From contig NZ_KE386569.1 of the NCBI RefSeq assembly GCF_000427625.1, positions 1,619,073 through 1,683,072 of the forward strand: a DNA stretch of 64,000 nucleotides, written 5' to 3'. The position numbers and the translations under genes were made by a program. This DNA comes from Methylobacter luteus IMV-B-3098. Lineage in GTDB: Bacteria; Pseudomonadota; Gammaproteobacteria; Methylococcales; Methylomonadaceae. Positions 47,163 to 57,939 of this stretch are shown piece by piece. Below the pieces are notes generated by a model. It made no database searches. It was not told the origin of the DNA and was given only the letters and a program-made list of their open reading frames with translations. Every line of letters begins with the position of its first letter. The stretch's first letter is position 1.

Positions 47163-48434
47163 TCAAGCTTTTTCACTGATTTCGCCGCCTGGTTTTAGCA
47201 ACGAGGAGCCCCGTTGTTCCAGCGCTTTGAGGTAAGTGGATTCATCATAGGGCTTACCGGTCTGCCAGCACCGGTAGAGGATACGTATCCATTTAAACGC
47301 CAGGGAACGCACAGCGGCTTGATAGGTTGAGCCCTTTGCGCGCTGCTGTCGGTAATATTGGCCCGCCCAGAATGATTTATTAATGGTCTGTGCCGCCCAC
47401 TCGGTGAAGGTTTGTCGAAGAAAGGTCGGGCACTCCCACCGCCAATGCACCCAATGTTTCTTACCACTGCGCTCCGTTACTGGCGCAACGCCCGCATATT
47501 TTTGTAAATCTGCCGCACTCGGGTATCGATCTCGCTGCTCGCCAAACGCCACCAATAGCCTCGGCGCGAGCGATGAACCTGCGCCTGGCAATGCGCTAAA
47601 CAAGGCATAATCAGGATGCTGACAGGCGATTTGCTCAATGGCCTGGTCAAATTGTTTAATCCCTTCCAGAGTAACGCTTAACTGTTCGATCAATACCTGT
47701 GCCTGTAGGCGATAGGGAATGATAATAGCCTCATCTAAAGTTAACGGCGTTGCAGTTTTGATCGCTGCCAGCCGCTCTTCCAACACCTGAGGAAAACGCA
47801 TGTTATGTTGATGAAAAAAGGTGGCCAGCGTATTTTTTCGGGCCCGTTTGACTTGGGCCAGCGTTGGCCATTGGCGAATGAAAGCACAGAATAACGGGGT
47901 ATCAATATGATCAAACCAGTCCAGGACTTGCGGATAATACTGCTTTAAGGCCGAACGCAGACGGTTGGTGAGACGGATTTTATCGTTAACCAAACTCCTT
48001 CTTTGCTCAACCAGGGATGACAAGGCTCGCATTTCCAGGCTTTGAGGCTGAAGGGGTTTAAAACGCTCGGGATGACGTAACAGTAGATCCACAGCGAATT
48101 CCGCATCCGTCGGATCATCCTTTGCCCTGCTCGGCGTAAAGGCTTCCCGATACTTGGCCAGCGTTCCAGGATTGATCGGATAAATGACAAAGCTATCAAA
48201 TTTCTGCAGTGCATATACAATCGGACCTTTCGACAGTTCCACGGCGACCGCAATAGGTGAGCCAAACCGTTGAATTAAGGCTTGCGCCCAATCGTTGATC
48301 GATTCAACTTGATGGGGAATCACTGAAAACTCCCGCTTCGGGCTGTCTGCCGCTTGAAGGCAAACGTCATGCTTTCTGTCGGCCCAGTCAATACCGACAA
48401 AAGCTGTAAACGATGGCTTGTTAAGGCTATTCAT
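47163..48434 (-). CDS. IS110-family transposase
   Basis: The start at 48434 is set by GGAGATCAGGT upstream. The ~423-residue product has the IS110 RuvC-like DEDD domain: GIDWADRKHDV (Asp), VAVELSKG (Glu), KDDPTDAEFAVDLL (Asp, Asp). The C-terminal Transposase_20 region contains SALPGAGSSLAPRLLVAFGE (HhH-like) and the presumed catalytic Ser in a KYAGVAPVTERSGKKH context. These recombinases move circular intermediates without usual inverted ends. The reading frame is intact and it is a single copy in the window. Confidence 0.92.
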   Translation of the reverse strand: MNSLNKPSFTAFVGIDWADRKHDVCLQAADSPKREFSVIPHQVESINDWAQALIQRFGSPIAVAVELSKGPIVYALQKFDSFVIYPINPGTLAKYREAFTPSRAKDDPTDAEFAVDLLLRHPERFKPLQPQSLEMRALSSLVEQRRSLVNDKIRLTNRLRSALKQYYPQVLDWFDHIDTPLFCAFIRQWPTLAQVKRARKNTLATFFHQHNMRFPQVLEERLAAIKTATPLTLDEAIIIPYRLQAQVLIEQLSVTLEGIKQFDQAIEQIACQHPDYALFSALPGAGSSLAPRLLVAFGEQRDRYPSAADLQKYAGVAPVTERSGKKHWVHWRWECPTFLRQTFTEWAAQTINKSFWAGQYYRQQRAKGSTYQAAVRSLAFKWIRILYRCWQTGKPYDESTYLKALEQRGSSLLKPGGEISEKA

Positions 48435-48752
48435 ACCTGATCTCCGGCGGGGTCGATTAACCAAGAGAAACATGCCTGCCTGAGATCTGCGAAAGCAATA
48501 TAGGTGAGCCGATGCCGCGGCAAGCCCTGAGTATTCGTTAGTGATCCCAAGCGCACCCGTGGGCTCGAAACCAAACCGGTGAACATCTAAATGTTGGGGT
48601 CGAATTATTCGTAGCCCGCAGGTGCATGTCCTGCTTTACTGGCAGCTACCTGCCAGCTGTGCTGAGTATCACCTAAAACAGGACGGAAGGACTATAAAGG
48701 GTTGATTTTTGCCTGTCGATTAAGAGAATGGTCACTACCTTGGCAGCAACTT
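48435..48752 (-). ncRNA. IS110 non-coding end, candidate bridge RNA region
   Basis: About 320 bases upstream of the transposase on its own strand hold no gene. They contain several short stems, for example CTGGCAG..CTGCCAG (48640-48657 area). Members of the IS110 family are known to express a structured RNA from the non-coding end that pairs with target and donor DNA. The position fits the IS110 group. The RNA boundaries and element ends cannot be fixed by eye. Confidence 0.4.
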
Positions 48753-49784: not shown

Positions 49785-50522
49785 ATGCCTATTCGTGACT
49801 CTTTTCGGTTAATTTTTTTAAGATTAGCTCCCTTATCCTTCATTCTTTGGCTTCCGGTTTCGCAAGCGGACTGGCATGGGGATATAAAACTCCTGTCCGA
49901 TTATGTCTATCGGGGGTATTCTAAAAGCAGAGGAAATCCTATTGTTCAGGCAAATATTGACTACCAAGATACTAGCGGATGGTTTGCCGGACTGGGCGTA
50001 TCCCAGGTTCGCTTTGATGATCAACAGTACGCCGATCGTGCCGAGATTGAAATAAAACCCTACTTGGGCTGGAGTTTGCCGCTTTCCACGGACTGGAGGG
50101 CGGAGTTATCGGTCAGCGGTTATATTTATGATAATAAAATCTTCAATCATTCCGCTGATTACGCGGAATTTTACGCATCGCTGCATTATCAGGGCTGGCT
50201 AAGCGCCAGAGCATCCATCGCGCCGAATGCCTATCAGCGGCATGCCGATGTCGCCAATTACGAACTCACTTATCGTCGTGATTTATTGGATACCGTACAA
50301 TTTTCCGCCGGCCTGGGCTATAACCAGGCCGGCGCGTTGCTTGGGCACGATTATTTCTACTGGAATGCCGGCTTCTCATGGTTTGCAACACCCTATTTAT
50401 CTATAGATGTCCGTTATGTTGATGTTGCCCTCCCTAATCAAGAGTCCGAAGATCATCATGATGACTTTTATCCCCGGCAGCAGGAAAACAAGTACCTGTT
50501 CTCTGTCACGCTCGGGTTCTAA
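49785..50522 (+). CDS. TorF-family putative porin
   Basis: The 245-residue protein has a signal peptide ending near SQA. The barrel pattern starts with DWHGDIKLLSDYVYRGYSKS, the family's typical first strand (LxSDYxxRGxS), continues with RAELSVSGYIYD and YFYWNAGFSWFATPYLSIDV and ends in YLFSVTLGF with terminal Phe. It is an outer-membrane porin of unknown selectivity. It lies 91 bases before the sigma-factor gene on the same strand and may be part of that transcription unit or its target. Confidence 0.85.
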   Translation: MPIRDSFRLIFLRLAPLSFILWLPVSQADWHGDIKLLSDYVYRGYSKSRGNPIVQANIDYQDTSGWFAGLGVSQVRFDDQQYADRAEIEIKPYLGWSLPLSTDWRAELSVSGYIYDNKIFNHSADYAEFYASLHYQGWLSARASIAPNAYQRHADVANYELTYRRDLLDTVQFSAGLGYNQAGALLGHDYFYWNAGFSWFATPYLSIDVRYVDVALPNQESEDHHDDFYPRQQENKYLFSVTLGF

Positions 50523-50613
50523 AAATATTTAAATGCGATTGAACCTTTTGCTTTATTGACGGAATATAGCTAGTAAGACAACCGATGATATCGGAAGGAA
50601 AACAGGTTAAACC

Positions 50614-51207
50614 ATGTTGCGTTTAGTGCGTAATCAAACACCACCCATACCGGATAAGACTGCAACCGAAGTCGATGAATATGCATTGCTCCAGCGTATA
50701 GTCGAAGGGGATACGCTGGCGTTTGAAACGTTTTACAAGCTTTACTATCCCAGATTGTTCCGGTTCATTTTGCGTATTACCCGTCAGCCGGACCACATCG
50801 AGGAGTTGATACAGGAAACCTTGCTACTGATTTGGGAGAAGCCGGAACGCTTCAACCATAGTAGTAAAATTTCAACCTGGGTGTTTGGCATCGCGTATCG
50901 CAAGGCGCTTAAATCAATGTCCAGAGCAGCCAGAAGCAGCAATAATCTGGATGTCGATGAATACGGAGAAACCATAGCCGATCCATTAGCCAATCTGGCC
51001 GAGAATACCGAAACTCAAGATTGGCTGAATTGCGCGCTCGATATCCTGCCTGCCGATCAGCGTGCCGTGATCGAATTAACCTTTTATCACGGCCTGCCGT
51101 ATCAAGAGATTGCCAAAATCCTCGACTGTCCGGAAAACACTATCAAAACTCGTATGTTTCATGCCCGCAAAAAGCTTCAGGCATTTGCGGAAGCAAAGGG
51201 GAATTAA
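50614..51207 (+). CDS. ECF-type RNA polymerase sigma factor
   Basis: The 197-residue protein contains region 2 (LAFETFYKLYYPRLFRFILR, IEELIQETLLLIWEKPERF, STWVFGIAYRKAL) and region 4 (LPADQRAVIELTFYHGLPYQ, EIAKILDCPENTIKTRMFHA). AAGGAA and AGG lie before the ATG. It directs transcription of an envelope or stress regulon. The anti-sigma gene follows after 4 bases and a subtilisin-like lipoprotein gene overlaps that, so the three form one operon. Confidence 0.92.
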   Translation: MLRLVRNQTPPIPDKTATEVDEYALLQRIVEGDTLAFETFYKLYYPRLFRFILRITRQPDHIEELIQETLLLIWEKPERFNHSSKISTWVFGIAYRKALKSMSRAARSSNNLDVDEYGETIADPLANLAENTETQDWLNCALDILPADQRAVIELTFYHGLPYQEIAKILDCPENTIKTRMFHARKKLQAFAEAKGN

Positions 51208-51211
51208 GACC

Positions 51212-51886
51212 ATGAACCAATTGACATCAATTAGCCAGACCCAACATCAAGAGGTCCAGTTTTTATTGCCTTGGTACGTGAACCAAAGCCTGCGGCAACA
51301 TGAACATCGTCTGGTAGAAAACCACATTCGTCATTGCCTGCCATGCCGCAGGGAACTGGATAGTCTGCGCAAATTGGCCGAAGCTGTGACAATCGCATCC
51401 GATCTGGATCTGGCCGCGGAAACATCGTTCGCGGGCCTGCGGACAAAGCTGCCGGCAAGAGCCCCTGGCAGAGCGCAATCAGCCGCATCAGCAAAAACAG
51501 CGACACCCGGCAGAATCGGCAAGTTCGCAAATCAAACCGGTGTTCGTCTTGCAATGGCCGCGTCCCTGTTGCTGGCGGTTATTCCGTTAACCCTGCATAC
51601 AGTCCAAACGAATACGACAGACCATTACTACACGCTTTCAGCCGCAAAACCCGAATCAGCTACCGGCAAGGAATTGCGAGTAGTTTTTGCCAAATCGTCA
51701 TCTTCTGCGGAAGTCGCCGCTGTTCTGGCGGAAATACACGGCCAGCGCATCGGTGAACCCAACAGCGTTGGCGCCTTGACGGTACGGCTGGAAGCCGGCG
51801 GAAGCAGTCCTCGCCTGGAGGAAGCCATCGCCTTGTTACGAAGTCGCCAGGATGTGCTGCTGGCTGAACCTGTCATGCAGCCATGA
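51212..51886 (+). CDS. Zinc-finger anti-sigma factor with a protease-propeptide-like periplasmic domain
   Basis: The start at 51212 follows AAGGGG. The 224-residue product has an N-terminal ZAS helix (HRLVENHIRHCLPCRREL, HxxxCxxC, about residues 32-49), and one membrane segment (LAMAASLLLAVIPLTL, about 113-128). The outer domain reads ELRVVFAKSSSSAEVAAVLA, GQRIGEPNSVGALTVRLEAG and LEEAIALLRSRQDVLLAEPV. That beta-alpha-beta-beta-alpha-beta spacing resembles the I9 propeptide that inhibits subtilisins. A subtilisin lipoprotein gene overlaps its stop by 4 bases (ATGA). It would hold the sigma factor at the membrane until released. Confidence 0.82.
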   Translation: MNQLTSISQTQHQEVQFLLPWYVNQSLRQHEHRLVENHIRHCLPCRRELDSLRKLAEAVTIASDLDLAAETSFAGLRTKLPARAPGRAQSAASAKTATPGRIGKFANQTGVRLAMAASLLLAVIPLTLHTVQTNTTDHYYTLSAAKPESATGKELRVVFAKSSSSAEVAAVLAEIHGQRIGEPNSVGALTVRLEAGGSSPRLEEAIALLRSRQDVLLAEPVMQP

Positions 51887-53136
51887 AACTCGTCCGGTTT
51901 ACGCTGCTGCTCGCATTGGTCGCGCTATTGACAACCGGCTGCGCCAATAAGACTGATTACTCACGCTTGGGTGACAGCCCAAACGTTGACGAAAGGCGCC
52001 TGCTAGTGACCTTTGTCGACCGGACCATCAACCGTAATTTACCCGGCAATACCCAGGACAGTTACCGGCTGCGTGGTCAATACAATAACTCCAGCTGGAG
52101 TGAACGTGTTGCCCGCCATCTTGCCGAGCGTTATCAATTGCAATTTGTCGCCCAGTGGCCAGTTACAGAATTAGGGGTCAGCTGTGTGGTTTATGGAGTC
52201 CCCGAAACATTGCCTTTGCGCCAGGTAATGGCTGCTTTGCAAAAAGATCAGGATGTTTCGTCGGTACAACAAATGCAGACTTTCAATGTGCTGGGCAATC
52301 AACATTCGGCTATCAAGCCCTACAGCGACCCGTACTTGCATTTGCAAACCGGCTTTCAATCATTGGGCATAGCGGAACTGCACAAATTCAGCACCGGCCA
52401 GGGTATACGCATTGCACTAATCGATACCGGCGTTGATGTTGATCATCCTGATTTGAAAGGTCAAATCAGCTATTCCGAAAATGTGGCGCCGGAGCCAGGT
52501 GATCACAGTCTGGCAGAGCTTCACGGAACTGCTGTGGCTGGCGTATTGTCGGCACGTGCCGATAACGGAATTGGCATTGCCGGCATCGCGCCGGAAGCCG
52601 AAATTCTGGCTTTTCGCGCCTGCTGGCCGGATAACCCGGGTTCCTTGGCTGCACGCTGCAACAGTTTTACCCTGGCCCTGGCGCTCAATCAGGCCATTCG
52701 CCTGAAAAGTCGCATCATCAATCTCAGCTTGAGCGGCCCTGAAGATCCTTTGCTGAAGATGCTGATTGAGAAAGCGCTGAGCGAAGGCATCATTGTCATT
52801 GCGGCTGTTCCAGGCAAAGATCAAATCGGAAGCTTTCCGGCCAATGTGCCTGGCGTGCTGGCAGTAGGGCGTGGTGGGGAAGCGGAAAATTTAAGCTTTA
52901 TTGCCCCAGGTCAGGACATTCTTACGACAGTCCCCCATGGGGCGTATGATTTTATGAGCGGCAGTTCTTTTGCCACACCGCATGTCGCAGGTCTCATAGC
53001 TCTACTTCTGCAACTTCATCCTGATTGGCAAATCAGCGATATCAAAAATCATCTCAATAGTGAATCAAGCTTATTAACTACACATACGCCGAATGCCTCA
53101 TCGCTTAGAGATGAGCGCAATGCCACCCCTAACTGA
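51883..53136 (+). CDS. Subtilisin-family (S8) serine protease lipoprotein
   Basis: The 417-residue protein has lipobox TTGC (Cys20) and an N-terminal propeptide-like domain (about residues 38-135: RRLLVTFVDRTIN, RHLAERYQLQFVAQWPVTEL, ALQKDQDVSSVQQMQ). The S8 catalytic domain has Asp in IALIDTGVDVDHPDL (about 180), His in LHGTAVAGVLSA (about 214) and Ser in GSSFATPHVAGL (about 361). It sits in the periplasm tethered to a membrane. The gene overlaps the anti-sigma gene, so both are made together; cutting of the anti-sigma outer domain is a reasonable inference. Confidence 0.88.
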   Translation: MKLVRFTLLLALVALLTTGCANKTDYSRLGDSPNVDERRLLVTFVDRTINRNLPGNTQDSYRLRGQYNNSSWSERVARHLAERYQLQFVAQWPVTELGVSCVVYGVPETLPLRQVMAALQKDQDVSSVQQMQTFNVLGNQHSAIKPYSDPYLHLQTGFQSLGIAELHKFSTGQGIRIALIDTGVDVDHPDLKGQISYSENVAPEPGDHSLAELHGTAVAGVLSARADNGIGIAGIAPEAEILAFRACWPDNPGSLAARCNSFTLALALNQAIRLKSRIINLSLSGPEDPLLKMLIEKALSEGIIVIAAVPGKDQIGSFPANVPGVLAVGRGGEAENLSFIAPGQDILTTVPHGAYDFMSGSSFATPHVAGLIALLLQLHPDWQISDIKNHLNSESSLLTTHTPNASSLRDERNATPN

Positions 53137-53366: not shown

Positions 53367-53732
53367 ATGCCCAAGCCTTATTCCGAAGATTTACGCAGCC
53401 GGGTGGCTGAAGCGGTTGCCGCAGGCCACACCGTGCGGGCCGTGGCTTTACAATACAAAGTCAGTCCGGCCTTTGTCTGCCGAATGCACGCCTTGTGGCG
53501 TGAAACCGGAGCCGTTCAAGGCAAGCCCTTTGGCGGCTACAGACGCTCGCGGCTGGAACCTTATGAAGCCGCCATCAAGGAACAGTTAGCGAGTAGTCCG
53601 TCGATGACCTTGCAGGAACTGCAGGCTTGGCTGGGACGCGAACACAGCCTAAGTGTTTCGATCTCGGCCATTGATAAGTTTATTAGGCGCAAGCTGGGCT
53701 ATCGCTATAAAAAAAACGCTGGTCGCCAGTGA
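53367..53732 (+). CDS. IS630 transposase orfA, copy 2
   Basis: Its translation is identical to the orfA at 3842: the 121-residue N-terminal HTH half, ending after the A8 run. See that entry for domains. Confidence 0.9.
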   Translation: MPKPYSEDLRSRVAEAVAAGHTVRAVALQYKVSPAFVCRMHALWRETGAVQGKPFGGYRRSRLEPYEAAIKEQLASSPSMTLQELQAWLGREHSLSVSISAIDKFIRRKLGYRYKKNAGRQ

Positions 53733-54315
53733 GCAGCAACGCGCAGATGTCGCGATGGCCCGAGAGCAATGGCAAGCCTGGCAGCAAACCTGCGATCTGT
53801 CAAAGTTGGTGTTTCTGGATGAAACGGGCGTCTCCACGAACATGATCCGTCGCTATGGCCGGGCCTTGGGTGGCGCCCGCTGTCGGGATGCGGCACCGGC
53901 AGGCCATTGGCAAACCCTGACCTTCATTGCCGGCTTGCGTGCCGACCGGCTCACCGCGCCCTGGTGTCTGGACCAGGCCATGACGGGCGAAGCCTTCAAG
54001 GAATATCTGCGCTCGCAACTGGGACCGACCTTGAAGCCCGGCGACATCGTCATCTGTGACAATCTGTCCGCCCATAAGGTGGCGGAAGTCCAGTCCATTG
54101 TTGAAGCGCACGGGGCGACGATCCAATATCTGCCGCCCTATAGTCCTGAGCTGAATCCGATCGAGCAAGTCTTCGCCAAACTGAAGGCGTTGCTGCGCAA
54201 GGCCGCCGAGCGCACTTACGACAAGCTCTGGCAACTCATTGGTAAGCTGTTGGATGAGTTTCAAGCGGATGAGTGCCTCAATCTCTTCAGGCATTCAGGC
54301 TATGTTTCTACGTAA
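53653..54315 (+). CDS. IS630 transposase orfB, copy 2
   Basis: Its translation is identical to the orfB at 4128: the DDE_3 catalytic half, +1 frame relative to orfA, with D, D and E residues present. Expression is expected through slippage on the A8 run at 53709-53716. Confidence 0.9.
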   Translation: MFRSRPLISLLGASWAIAIKKTLVASEQQRADVAMAREQWQAWQQTCDLSKLVFLDETGVSTNMIRRYGRALGGARCRDAAPAGHWQTLTFIAGLRADRLTAPWCLDQAMTGEAFKEYLRSQLGPTLKPGDIVICDNLSAHKVAEVQSIVEAHGATIQYLPPYSPELNPIEQVFAKLKALLRKAAERTYDKLWQLIGKLLDEFQADECLNLFRHSGYVST

Positions 54316-55755: not shown

Positions 55756-57939
55756 TTAGAAATCGGGGATACGAATCCGCCGATAAGTTTGGGTGCTGAC
55801 GGTGACAGGGATGCTGCCCGTCGTAACGATCCAGGCCGTTGCGTCTGCGACGCTGATGCCGGGAACGGCGGCCTTGATGGCAGCATATACGCCCGCTGCG
55901 TGCGGGGCTGCCTGCGATGTGCCGGCCATCTGCCTGGTGGCGGTTTTCGAGGCCCGGTCCGCGGATCTGATCGCTGTCCCCCCGCCGCCGCCTGGAGCCA
56001 ACAGAATCGGTCCGGTGAAGCTGGCCGGGTTGCCGATGTTTGCGAAGTCATTGACGGATGTGCCGCTTGCATCGCTCATAACTGAACTTACCTTAATAGT
56101 CTGAGGGACGCAGGCCGGCCAACCGACCCCGTTACGTCTCCCTTCGTTCCCTGTAGCGACTACGACCGGAACCCCCCGGGAAGTCAGACTCTTGATAGCA
56201 CTCGTGATATAGGCATGCAAATCCGGACAATCCGCGGAAGAAAGTGAGCCACCAAAGCTCATGTTGACCACATAAGGATTATTCGTGCCCGGCTTCGTGG
56301 CCGACAATACGGCGTTGAGGACAGCCAGAATGTCCGAGCTGAATGACACCGCCTTTAAGTTCGTTGTGTCATACGAGAACACTTGAGCCGAGATCAGTTT
56401 AGCGTCGGGCGCAACCCCCTGAAGATTCGATGGCGAAACTCGAGGACTGCGGCGGCCTGCGGCAATGCCGGCAATATGTGTGCCGTGCGAGCAGTCATGA
56501 TGGGAGGAGGCAGACAACGCCAAAGATTTGCAGACTTCCAAGTCTCCGAACGGCTCTCCAGAGCCGGCCAGACCCAACGGGCTGTCGCCGGCGCCATTCT
56601 GTCTTGGGCAGATCGAACGATAACCCTGATTATTCGTGCCGAAACAAGCCTCATAGATGACCTTGGTCACACCGTTCATTTTGAAGAGCTCGTGATCTTT
56701 TCGCACGCCGGAATCGGCAATGATGATATTTTGACCGGCAGCGCGATATCCGGCGTCCCATGCGGATTGCATGTTCATCAGCCCGGTGCTGGTGGTCAGC
56801 GCTGTCCAGGCTGCGGGCCGGTTCAATTCGATGCCGAGAATTCTCGGGTCGGCATTTTTGTACAACTGCGTCAAGGAGTCATACGGAAGGCGCATATGGA
56901 GAGCCCCGATTTCGGGATAGCTCGCCACAACTGCTGATGACAGCAAAGCATCGGCATTAGCGAGGATATCGTCAAAAGCTCGCTGATTGGCGTCGGCTTG
57001 AGCCTTTAACGCTGTAGCCGACATGAAACCTGTCTTCGCGGAAAAAATTGCGCCGCCGCGCAATGTGATAACCACCTCCGCCGAACCATCCGCCTGTGCG
57101 GATGCCAGCACATCAGCCGGCCATTGGGCCGGGCGAGGGTCAACAAAGCCTATCGGCCGAATTGCCCTCACATCAACGCTTTCACGTAGCCCGTAGAATG
57201 CATTCTTGTCAATTTTTACCCGAAAACTTGGTCTGGGCACAGCAGCCAGGAACGGACTGAGATCAAAGTTCTTGAAGGTCCGGGCGAGCTCATGCGCTCC
57301 GATATCGCTCAAACGCTTGATGATCTGATCCGACAGCTCCACTGATGGTCGAAATACAGTCCTGCCGCTCCTGTCGATGTCGTAGTCGCCTTCATCGACG
57401 TTCAGAAACACCTCGACATCGGCAAAGCCTTTTGCATTGATCGCGGTTTCGATGGCGTCGAGGCTGCCGTCAATGTCATGCGCCCGGATGCGGTACATAT
57501 GCGTCACATCGGGCATGAAGGCTGCCGCGCTGGCGCTGTTGGCCAGAACGCGAAGACCATTCGTATTCACATAGACCCCAATCTGGCCGATGCCGTTATT
57601 CCAGTATCCTGATGGCAACGCGTCCTGGCCCAGCTCAGCCAGCAGAATCTCCGCTTTCGACTCCATCTCCGCTTTTACGGAGAGCGGATCGCTTTTCATC
57701 GCCTCCAGTGTCACCGTGTCATCCAGCGTCACCAGGACACGGGCCGCGCCTTTTGAATTTGCCTCATCGAGCAATTTTGCATAGTCGCCGGGGTCGGATT
57801 GAGCGCCGAAGGCAATGGACGTCGCTAGCAGGATGGACAGCGCCAGCATGGCGCGGCCGCAGGGAATCCTGCCGAACGATGAGCAAAAGGCTCGTTCTGT
57901 CGTGTCGTTACCCATTACTGTTGGTTCAAACATAGCCAT
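55756..57939 (-). CDS. Large secreted subtilisin-family (S8) serine protease
   Basis: The product is 727 residues from the ATG at 57939 (a later Met at residue 9 is possible). A signal-like segment is MLALSILLATSIAFG (residues 31-45). A long N-terminal region of about 340 residues may include propeptide-like repeats (ARVLVTLDDTVTLEAM, AEVVITLRGGAIFSAK). The S8 domain has Asp in IIIADSGVRKDHE, His in CSHGTHIAGIAAG, the oxyanion Asn in VVATGNEGRRN and Ser675 in MAGTSQAAPHAAGV. It is exported and probably self-processing. No Shine-Dalgarno is evident. It is unrelated in sequence layout to the lipoprotein S8 at 51883. Confidence 0.85.
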   Translation of the reverse strand: MAMFEPTVMGNDTTERAFCSSFGRIPCGRAMLALSILLATSIAFGAQSDPGDYAKLLDEANSKGAARVLVTLDDTVTLEAMKSDPLSVKAEMESKAEILLAELGQDALPSGYWNNGIGQIGVYVNTNGLRVLANSASAAAFMPDVTHMYRIRAHDIDGSLDAIETAINAKGFADVEVFLNVDEGDYDIDRSGRTVFRPSVELSDQIIKRLSDIGAHELARTFKNFDLSPFLAAVPRPSFRVKIDKNAFYGLRESVDVRAIRPIGFVDPRPAQWPADVLASAQADGSAEVVITLRGGAIFSAKTGFMSATALKAQADANQRAFDDILANADALLSSAVVASYPEIGALHMRLPYDSLTQLYKNADPRILGIELNRPAAWTALTTSTGLMNMQSAWDAGYRAAGQNIIIADSGVRKDHELFKMNGVTKVIYEACFGTNNQGYRSICPRQNGAGDSPLGLAGSGEPFGDLEVCKSLALSASSHHDCSHGTHIAGIAAGRRSPRVSPSNLQGVAPDAKLISAQVFSYDTTNLKAVSFSSDILAVLNAVLSATKPGTNNPYVVNMSFGGSLSSADCPDLHAYITSAIKSLTSRGVPVVVATGNEGRRNGVGWPACVPQTIKVSSVMSDASGTSVNDFANIGNPASFTGPILLAPGGGGGTAIRSADRASKTATRQMAGTSQAAPHAAGVYAAIKAAVPGISVADATAWIVTTGSIPVTVSTQTYRRIRIPDF

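What the first reader, a model, noticed from the sequence alone, without database searches (positions are those of the whole stretch)
50614..53136. Sigma / anti-sigma / subtilisin operon with a prodomain-like anti-sigma
The anti-sigma factor's outer domain (RVVFAKSSSSAEVAAVLAEI ... LRSRQDVLLAEPV) looks like an I9-type protease propeptide, and the overlapping gene encodes an S8 lipoprotein that has its own propeptide-like domain. A direct model is that the protease recognises the anti-sigma domain as pseudo-propeptide, so that free or misdirected protease activity releases the sigma factor. The TorF porin upstream may be a target. This differs from the usual site-1/site-2 protease scheme and is a candidate undescribed system.
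Basis: partly seen in the sequence, partly recalled or inferred. Interest (0 to 1): 0.75.

Follow-up and report, generated by a model that had tools for sequence, protein, structure and literature searches.

The report
Propeptide-bearing anti-sigma paired with subtilisin
A methane-eating bacterium carries a signalling cassette, also found in many relatives, in which a membrane switch protein ends in a look-alike of a protease's own "safety cap" and is encoded next to such a protease, suggesting that the protease flips the gene switch.

Summary
The window encodes an ECF sigma (50614-51207), a zinc-finger membrane anti-sigma (51212-51886) and an S8 lipoprotein (51883-53136). The anti-sigma's outer domain is predicted as the propeptide fold; subtilisin propeptides are its top PDB matches, at modest E-values. 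56 of 80 homologues hit Pfam's fervidolysin prodomain at E<=0.1.

The triad is not local. Of 81 order-level anti-sigmas, an S8 is detected by 78 and is the next gene in 77. In a phylum sample it is beside 26 of 26 hits covering the domain (window included) and none of 4 lacking it. None of 30 ordinary anti-sigmas has one.

New here: a near-invariant [Y/F]-x-T-L-S motif just outside the membrane (Y/F and T in 80/80; 0/30 controls), resembling a subtilase cleavage site; and a conserved sigma promoter before the operon (62/78), in some relatives also before exported PEP-CTERM-type genes.

Most likely the S8 docks on the pseudo-propeptide and makes the first cut in the anti-sigma. Neither binding nor cleavage is shown. 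The window S8 lacks the oxyanion-hole Asn, so slow or binding-only action remains possible. TorF has no sense-strand sigma site.

The parts
49785..50522 (+). TorF-family putative porin (TIGR02001/PF09694); conserved upstream neighbour, no sense-strand sigma site in front of it
   Evidence: 72.7 bits vs cut-off 47.15; 50 of 55 same-strand TorF genes within 350 bp upstream of sigma
50541..50568 (+). predicted promoter of the ECF sigma, GAACCTTT-N12-GGAATATA (autoregulation)
   Evidence: only exact match in the own genome; site upstream of sigma in 62 of 78 loci, against 22 of 1560 shuffles and 0 of 78 on the reverse strand
50614..51207 (+). ECF sigma factor, 197 aa, regions 2 and 4
   Evidence: TIGR02937 104.5 bits; Sigma70_r2 2.2e-12, r4_2 5.8e-18
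51212..51886 (+). membrane anti-sigma factor, 224 aa
   Evidence: zf-HC2, one hydrophobic segment, C-terminal prodomain-like domain
51323..51346 (+). zinc motif H38-x3-C42-x2-C45 of the anti-sigma domain
   Evidence: H38, C42, C45 invariant in the 80 sequences of A2
51542..51601 (+). transmembrane helix (model helix residues 111-130, low pLDDT 57-60)
   Evidence: hydropathy peak >=1.6 in 77 of 81 homologues
51626..51640 (+). juxtamembrane motif Y139-Y-T-L-S143: candidate site-1 cleavage site
   Evidence: Y/F 80/80, T 80/80, L 73/80, S/A/G 80/80 while other linker columns have 2.3-3.7 bits entropy; 0 of 30 control anti-sigmas
51668..51871 (+). subtilisin-propeptide-like (I9-type) outer domain of the anti-sigma, residues 153-220; protein ends LLAEPVMQP
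   Evidence: PF22148 in 56 of 80; fold; PDB matches
51883..53136 (+). S8 subtilase with lipoprotein-type signal (LTTGC, Cys20), 417 aa; overlaps anti-sigma stop by 4 bases
   Evidence: PF00082 6.1e-32; model vs pro-subtilisin E 1.7e-23
51982..52290 (+). the protease's own N-terminal prodomain-like domain (about residues 34-136)
   Evidence: residues 141-149 after it have pLDDT<50
52396..53067 (+). S8 catalytic domain: Asp181, His214, Ser362; oxyanion-hole Asn replaced by Gly311
   Evidence: residues 172-395; D 76/76, H 76/76, S 75/75 where aligned; Asn column is N in 2 of 77

Best explanation
A self-contained envelope-signalling cassette. The ECF sigma is held by a membrane anti-sigma whose periplasmic end is a look-alike of a subtilisin propeptide. 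The cognate S8 subtilase, a predicted periplasmic lipoprotein in this clade with its own prodomain, docks through its catalytic domain on that pseudo-propeptide. When its own prodomain is displaced or removed by an unknown signal, it cuts the anti-sigma in the linker just outside the membrane at the conserved Tyr-x-Thr-Leu|Ser motif. An RseP-type protease and cytoplasmic proteases then finish the job, sigma is freed, and it transcribes its own operon (positive feedback) and, in some relatives, exported PEP-CTERM-type surface proteins. Supported by computation: the domain and its fold, the tight pairing with an S8, the invariant linker motif, the autoregulatory promoter. Inferred: docking, the cut, its position, the later steps and the signal. 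My odds: cognate pair about 0.85; S8 as site-1 protease about 0.5.
For: Fold and family of the outer domain. S8 next gene in 77 of the 78 loci with a detected S8, of 81 anti-sigmas (L114's is only a fragment); in the phylum sample 20 of 20 fetched places and, in an overlapping set that includes the window, 26 of 26 hits covering the domain against 0 of 4 lacking it; 0 of 30 ordinary ECF-linked anti-sigmas. Linker motif 80/80 (Y/F and T) against 0/30 controls; an aromatic first residue (19 of 20 phylum loci too, Met in L150) and small fifth residue match recalled subtilisin P4/P1' preferences. In the 20 phylum loci the P1-like residue is Leu/Phe in 8 of 8 with a non-canonical oxyanion residue but Ala in 10 of 12 with a canonical Asn motif (the script's L163 match was spurious and was read by eye as FQTAS, and L157 was counted as canonical by eye). 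Asp/His/Ser kept wherever aligned. Site-2 type protease present. Promoter; exact sites in 39 of 83 carriers vs 5 of 218 non-carriers. Sigma and S8 catalytic-domain distances correlate r=0.948 over 72 loci, i.e. the cassette is inherited as a unit.
Against: No binding or cleavage shown; no complex could be modelled. The oxyanion Asn is absent in the window's S8 and in 75 of 77 order-level S8s. If the pseudo-propeptide's tail fills the active site product-like, the linker motif cannot be there too; in the window clade the tail appears to stop short of P1 (hand alignment, no call), but in other clades it is longer. The motif could bind something else. Partial distance correlations are not specific to the domain (ASIGc-S8c given sigma 0.33, ASIGn-S8c 0.27). 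S8 copies are broken in L106, L113 and L114 and missing in L076, where the anti-sigma persists. The P1/oxyanion pattern is confounded by phylogeny. Foldseek E-values for the domain are modest.
Confidence: 0.52

Rival explanations
1. The pseudo-propeptide is mainly a tethered inhibitor or folding chaperone for the S8. Occupancy by the protease, not a cut, changes the anti-sigma and so reports how much free protease is in the periplasm; the protease is the output and the loop is homeostatic.
For: Propeptide-like proteins act in trans on cognate subtilases: SUB1-ProM is an inhibitor (PMC6993865, abstract), and A. sobria ORF2 is a chaperone and inhibitor whose C-terminal residues lie at the active site (PMC5638518, passages). 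In the own genome the only exact sigma site is this operon's. 39 of 81 anti-sigmas end in Pro, mostly in the window's own clade, at a fixed distance from the last strand.
Against: The S8 already has its own prodomain, so a second chaperone is not obviously needed. Does not explain the invariant linker motif.
Confidence: 0.25
2. In this clade the S8 is a degenerate, binding-only protease used as a co-sensor (RseB-like), and another protease makes the first cut.
For: Oxyanion Asn lost in 75 of 77 aligned order-level S8s while the five other own-genome S8s keep it.
Against: Asp, His and Ser are kept without exception where aligned, and 12 of 20 phylum-level partners have a canonical Asn motif (11 by alignment, L157 by my reading).
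Confidence: 0.13
3. The outer domain is just a common ferredoxin-like fold and the S8 is simply a regulon member kept nearby; no direct contact.
For: ACT, S6 and other ferredoxin-like folds are mixed into the Foldseek list; operon membership alone keeps genes together.
Against: Pfam picks the S8 prodomain family in 56 of 80 and nothing else comparable besides the zinc finger; propeptides take ranks 1, 2 and 4; ordinary ECF-linked anti-sigmas lack the S8 (0 of 30).
Confidence: 0.08

Closest known systems
RseA-DegS-RseP (sigma-E) regulated proteolysis (PMC8103513, passages)
   Same: membrane anti-sigma with a periplasmic part; envelope signal; a first cut outside the membrane followed by a site-2 protease (for our system inferred)
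   Different: site-1 protease is HtrA-type DegS with a PDZ domain; that RseA has no propeptide-like domain and that degS is not in the sigma operon is recalled
Eukaryotic site-1 protease SKI-1/S1P (recalled, no call)
   Same: a subtilase that makes the first cut in a membrane-held transcription regulator
   Different: eukaryotic; substrate lacks a propeptide-like docking domain; different motif
Aeromonas sobria protease ASP and its external chaperone ORF2 (PMC5638518, passages)
   Same: a neighbouring gene provides a propeptide function in trans to an S8; C-terminal residues lie at the active site
   Different: ASP is propeptide-deficient and ORF2 is not an anti-sigma; ORF2's family PF18492 hits only 5 of 74 S8 partners, weakly
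Plasmodium SUB1-ProM (PMC6993865, abstract)
   Same: propeptide-like protein encoded next to subtilases, inhibits one of them
   Different: stand-alone, eukaryotic, not linked to transcription control
ECF54 group (PMC8999054, passages)
   Same: ECF sigma with subtilase-domain proteins in its context
   Different: described there as acting without an anti-sigma factor
NCBIfam anti-sigma family NF052375
   Same: window protein residues 18-166 match profile 1-150 of 217 (33.1 bits, cut-off 100)
   Different: 30 loci of its best hits have no S8 within about 1.5 kb and no linker motif

Membership tests
ECF sigma factor | regions 2 and 4, sigma70-ECF family score | tested here: met
   TIGR02937 104.5 bits vs 42.9; Pfam r2 and r4_2
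ZAS-type anti-sigma factor | H-x3-C-x2-C zinc motif in a helical sigma-binding domain | tested here: met
   H38, C42, C45 invariant in 80; zf-HC2 in 79 of 80 at E<=0.1, window below cut-off; profile matches solved ChrR (6.3e-4) and RsiW (4.8e-3)
S8 propeptide / inhibitor I9 | beta-alpha-beta-beta-alpha-beta fold | tested here: met
   (predicted model)
S8 propeptide / inhibitor I9 | sequence membership above curated cut-off | tested here: inconclusive
   window protein 17.3 bits vs 21 for PF22148; 56 of 80 homologues at E<=0.1
S8 propeptide / inhibitor I9 | binds, folds or inhibits a cognate subtilase | not testable with these tools
   needs protein work
Peptidase S8 | Asp-His-Ser triad | tested here: met
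Peptidase S8 | oxyanion-hole Asn | tested here: not met
   Gly311 in the window by alignment; N in 2 of 77 order-level S8s
RseA/DegS-type system | HtrA-type site-1 protease dedicated to the anti-sigma | tested here: inconclusive
   the linked protease is S8, but HtrA proteins of the genome were not surveyed
RseA/DegS-type system | site-2 metalloprotease available | tested here: met
   PF02163 1.6e-70 in the own genome
ORF2-ASP external chaperone | partner S8 lacks its own propeptide | tested here: not met
   S8 model aligns with full pro-subtilisin
ECF54 | subtilase context without an anti-sigma | tested here: not met
   anti-sigma present

The most novel reading that the evidence does not exclude
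A bacterial counterpart of the eukaryotic subtilase site-1 protease: a family of anti-sigma factors across Pseudomonadota that carry a second subtilisin-type propeptide as a docking module, so that competition between the protease's own propeptide and the copy on the anti-sigma sets when the membrane switch is cut, coupling the state of periplasmic proteolysis to production of exported (in some relatives exosortase-type) surface proteins.
Probability: 0.35. Interest if true: 0.85.

Novelty: new variant of a known kind. Interest (0 to 1): 0.7.

Why it matters
Anti-sigma factors differ mainly in how they sense. A propeptide used as a sensor or docking module, with its protease in the same operon, would be a new way to couple protease state to transcription, frequent in the window's order (83 of 301 genomes), present elsewhere in the phylum (36 of 398 sampled genomes at E<=1e-6, a few of them hits without the domain) and on a named Sphingobium plasmid. 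The cassette gives defined, testable parts (domain, cut motif, promoter) and a candidate regulator for PEP-CTERM-type surface proteins. I found no description in ten searches of the held library (listings, plus passages or abstracts of four papers), but the ECF classification paper I looked for (10.1093/nar/gkaa1229) was not held.

Tried and rejected
Rejected: a triad unique to this genome. Rejected: pairing as a by-product of any ECF/anti-sigma operon (0 of 30 controls). Rejected: TorF as a direct sigma target (site in 1 of 56 TorF upstream regions in the sense direction).

Led nowhere, weak or against: at two mismatches the promoter pattern is not enriched in the own genome (48 sites vs 54 for the backward control), so the window genome's regulon may be only its own operon. 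16 of 56 TorF upstream regions passed the score on the opposite strand (14 of 1120 shuffles on the sense strand), so in some genomes a divergent neighbour of TorF may be the target; not resolved. Exosortase co-occurrence is moderate (71 of 83 carriers vs 123 of 218 others; not corrected for kinship; 12 carriers lack a match, one of them a 2-contig assembly). PEP_CTERM (TIGR02595) found nothing in the own genome and nothing in its controls, so it says nothing. Partial Mantel tests are not specific to the domain. A lipobox regex found 41 of 76 S8s and misses obvious ones (L041, L042, L054, L084, L099); others show an ordinary signal peptide instead. Plasmid search of the nucleotide triad: no match; protein search: one Sphingobium plasmid. 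IMG/VR: one distant S8 relative, not followed. Of 25 S8 relatives in named genomes the distant ones in other phyla were not checked for a sigma neighbour. All searches for the system in print were by words only.

Rows dropped: of the places I fetched 80, not those weaker than about 3e-15 and not some stronger fragments or extra copies (for example in G186, G234, G289, G070). A2 leaves out L093 (anti-sigma tail fused to an unrelated regulator ORF). A3 leaves out L042 and L070 (cut by contig ends), L113 and L114 (S8 split over frames), and L076, L093, L106 (no S8 hit; L106 shows a remnant on reading). Of 44 genomes with an exact promoter site I read loci for 30 including the window's.
Full report
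What is there. Searches place a sigma gene (50614-51207), an anti-sigma gene (51212-51886) and an S8 protease gene (51883-53136) on the + strand, the last two overlapping by 4 bases. Among named species the S8's best relatives are Methylobacter sp. BlB1 (84% in the best segment) and Methylomonas koyamae (68%; uncultured Methylococcaceae bins reach 71-73%), so the window is most likely from a Methylobacter-like methanotroph (inference; the genome itself is unnamed). PF00082 finds five other S8 genes in the own genome; reading the ORFs about 1.5 kb either side of each, I saw no ECF sigma or anti-sigma (by eye, no profile).

The outer domain. In the window protein alone the sequence evidence is weak (PF22148 17.3 bits, cut-off 21), but over 80 homologues PF22148 is hit in 56 and zf-HC2 in 79 at E<=0.1, with no other family above 3. 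AlphaFold2 with 80 sequences gives a beta-alpha-beta-beta-alpha-beta domain at residues 153-220. Foldseek gives subtilisin propeptides ranks 1, 2 and 4 (best E 3.3e-3; for the free subtilisin propeptides TM normalised by target 0.70-0.74, rmsd 2.3-2.5), with a mitoribosomal protein at rank 3 and other ferredoxin-like folds after. The S8's own N-terminal domain is prodomain-like too and aligns in register with it, but few members hit a Pfam prodomain-type family (PF22148 in 2, PF18492 in 5 of 74; the matched stretch was not shown).

Distribution and controls. The anti-sigma protein finds matches in 83 of 301 genomes of the order. I fetched 80 places. With the window that gives 81 anti-sigmas: an S8 is detected in 78 (four of them fragments: L042 and L070 at contig ends, L113 and L114 split) and lies within 50 bp downstream in 77, overlapping by 1 or 4 bases in 32; the sigma is on the same strand in 77, within 300 bp in 75, and on the opposite strand in 2; a same-strand TorF is seen in 55, within 350 bp upstream of sigma in 50, an opposite-strand one in 4, none in 22. 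The exceptions were read: L113, L114 and L106 have broken S8 genes, L093 is a fused fragment near transposase-like ORFs, and only L076 shows no trace of an S8. With profile A2, 36 of 398 phylum genomes match. All 20 fetched places have sigma, anti-sigma and S8, in two with the S8 ahead of sigma; a TorF hit is seen in 7 of the 20, in either orientation. Among the 30 loci returned with that search (an overlapping set, one of them the window's own), the S8 is beside 26 of 26 hits that cover the C-terminal domain and 0 of 4 that do not. Of 30 loci from the best hits of NF052375, all sit by an ECF sigma and none by an S8 within about 1.5 kb. On a Sphingobium plasmid the match (26% identity over 99% of the protein) lies between genes annotated sigma factor and serine protease; the hypothetical protein annotated there is shorter than the match.

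A candidate cleavage site. In the linker just after the membrane helix, low-confidence in the model, position 139 is Tyr or Phe in 80 of 80, 141 is Thr in 80 of 80, 142 is Leu in 73 (Val 6, Ala 1), 143 is Ser 63, Ala 16, Gly 1, while the other linker columns have entropies of about 2.3-3.7 bits. No control anti-sigma has it (0 of 30 strict, 0 of 30 loose). In the 20 phylum loci a looser form is present in all on reading, with an aromatic first residue in 19 (Met in L150). The pattern, aromatic P4, Leu or Ala P1, small P1', is what I recall of subtilisin preference. The P1-like residue follows the protease class: Leu or Phe in 8 of 8 partners with a non-canonical oxyanion residue, Ala in 10 of 12 with a canonical Asn motif (L157 counted as canonical from its AAAGN, L163 from the visible FQTAS). 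These are essentially two clades, so this is suggestive only.

The protease. Asp and His are present in 76 of 76 aligned order-level S8s and Ser in 75 of 75. The column of the oxyanion-hole Asn (by alignment to subtilisin) holds N in 2 of 77, while the five other own-genome S8s all have it and the more distant partners have it in 11 of 20 by alignment. From recalled enzymology, losing this Asn slows subtilisin strongly without abolishing it. A slow, single-substrate regulatory protease would fit, and so would a binding-only one.

Promoter and regulon. A site GAACC-TTT-N12-GGAAT lies upstream of sigma in 62 of 78 loci (22 of 1560 shuffles; 0 of 78 reverse strand). The exact pattern occurs 56 times in 44 of 301 genomes against 7 for the backward control, in 39 of 83 carriers and 5 of 218 others (Fisher p 1.9e-20, no correction for kinship). 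In the own genome the only exact site is this operon's. I read the loci of 30 of the 44 genomes. Nine besides the window's are in front of sigma. In front of exported proteins whose family passed its NCBIfam cut-off: PEP-CTERM (TIGR02595) in L201 and L202; NF038132 in L221, L222 and L226; TIGR03118 PEPCTERM_chp_1 in L209 and L198 (scored as L112, the same place). L203 falls below the cut-off and L204 only resembles L202 by eye. These come from few genera, so they are not independent. Other sites precede a multicopper-oxidase-like (L199), a PQQ-dehydrogenase-like (L223) and two unnamed exported proteins (L217, L220), an anti-sigma fragment (L200), doubtful ORFs (L208, L225), or no ORF (L211-L214). 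Weaker sites (score 10.5) precede TIGR03118 genes in L061 and L075. Exosortase is commoner in carriers (71 of 83 vs 123 of 218). So sigma probably activates its own operon and, in some relatives, surface proteins.

Mechanism and limits. Taken together the S8 and the anti-sigma are very likely a cognate pair. I think the S8 is a site-1 protease that uses the pseudo-propeptide to find its substrate (about even odds); tethered inhibition, or a binding-only S8, are the serious rivals.

Literature. Ten searches of the held library listed no paper that I recognised as describing such an anti-sigma; I saw listings, passages of PMC8999054, PMC8103513 and PMC5638518 and the abstract and outline of PMC6993865. 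PMC8999054 mentions subtilases near ECF54, a group without an anti-sigma. The NAR ECF classification paper was not held, so an S8 context may be tabulated there.

Noticed in passing
55756-57939 (-): A second S8 subtilase (727 aa, PF00082 4.6e-28) lies 2.6 kb from the triad, with a canonical TGN oxyanion motif; no ECF pair seen beside it.
   Followed up: partly
53367-54315 (+): Transposase-like gene in two overlapping frames (121 and 220 aa) directly downstream of the S8, of the kind that uses a frameshift (family name IS630-like is recalled).
   Followed up: no
47163-48473 (-): IS110-type transposase (name recalled from sequence) upstream of TorF.
   Followed up: no
L211, L212, L213, L214: Pairs of exact sigma sites 134 to 242 bases apart with no ORF of 70 aa or more starting within 400 bases downstream (none within 900 in L211 and L214); possible RNA or repeat.
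   Followed up: partly
upstream of TorF, opposite strand, e.g. L056:6379, L077:6291, L085:6354, L090:2406, L115:6541: Sigma-like sites pointing away from TorF in 16 of 56 loci at the score; a divergent neighbour may be a target.
   Followed up: partly
L095 and L104: Rearranged cassettes: TorF, anti-sigma and S8 on one strand, sigma convergent on the other.
   Followed up: no
L040:6128-7693, L096:3-1055, L220:2-1423: An unnamed secreted family (motif NFDxxNxxGQxAxGFE) behind a sigma-like site in three genomes.
   Followed up: no
S8 family, alignment A3: Invariant Cys101, Cys247 and Cys259 in the S8; C247-C259 may form a disulfide near an ACW motif.
   Followed up: no
own genome C1:1613595-1614320: Another S8 gene lies about 5 kb upstream of the window's start.
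   Followed up: no
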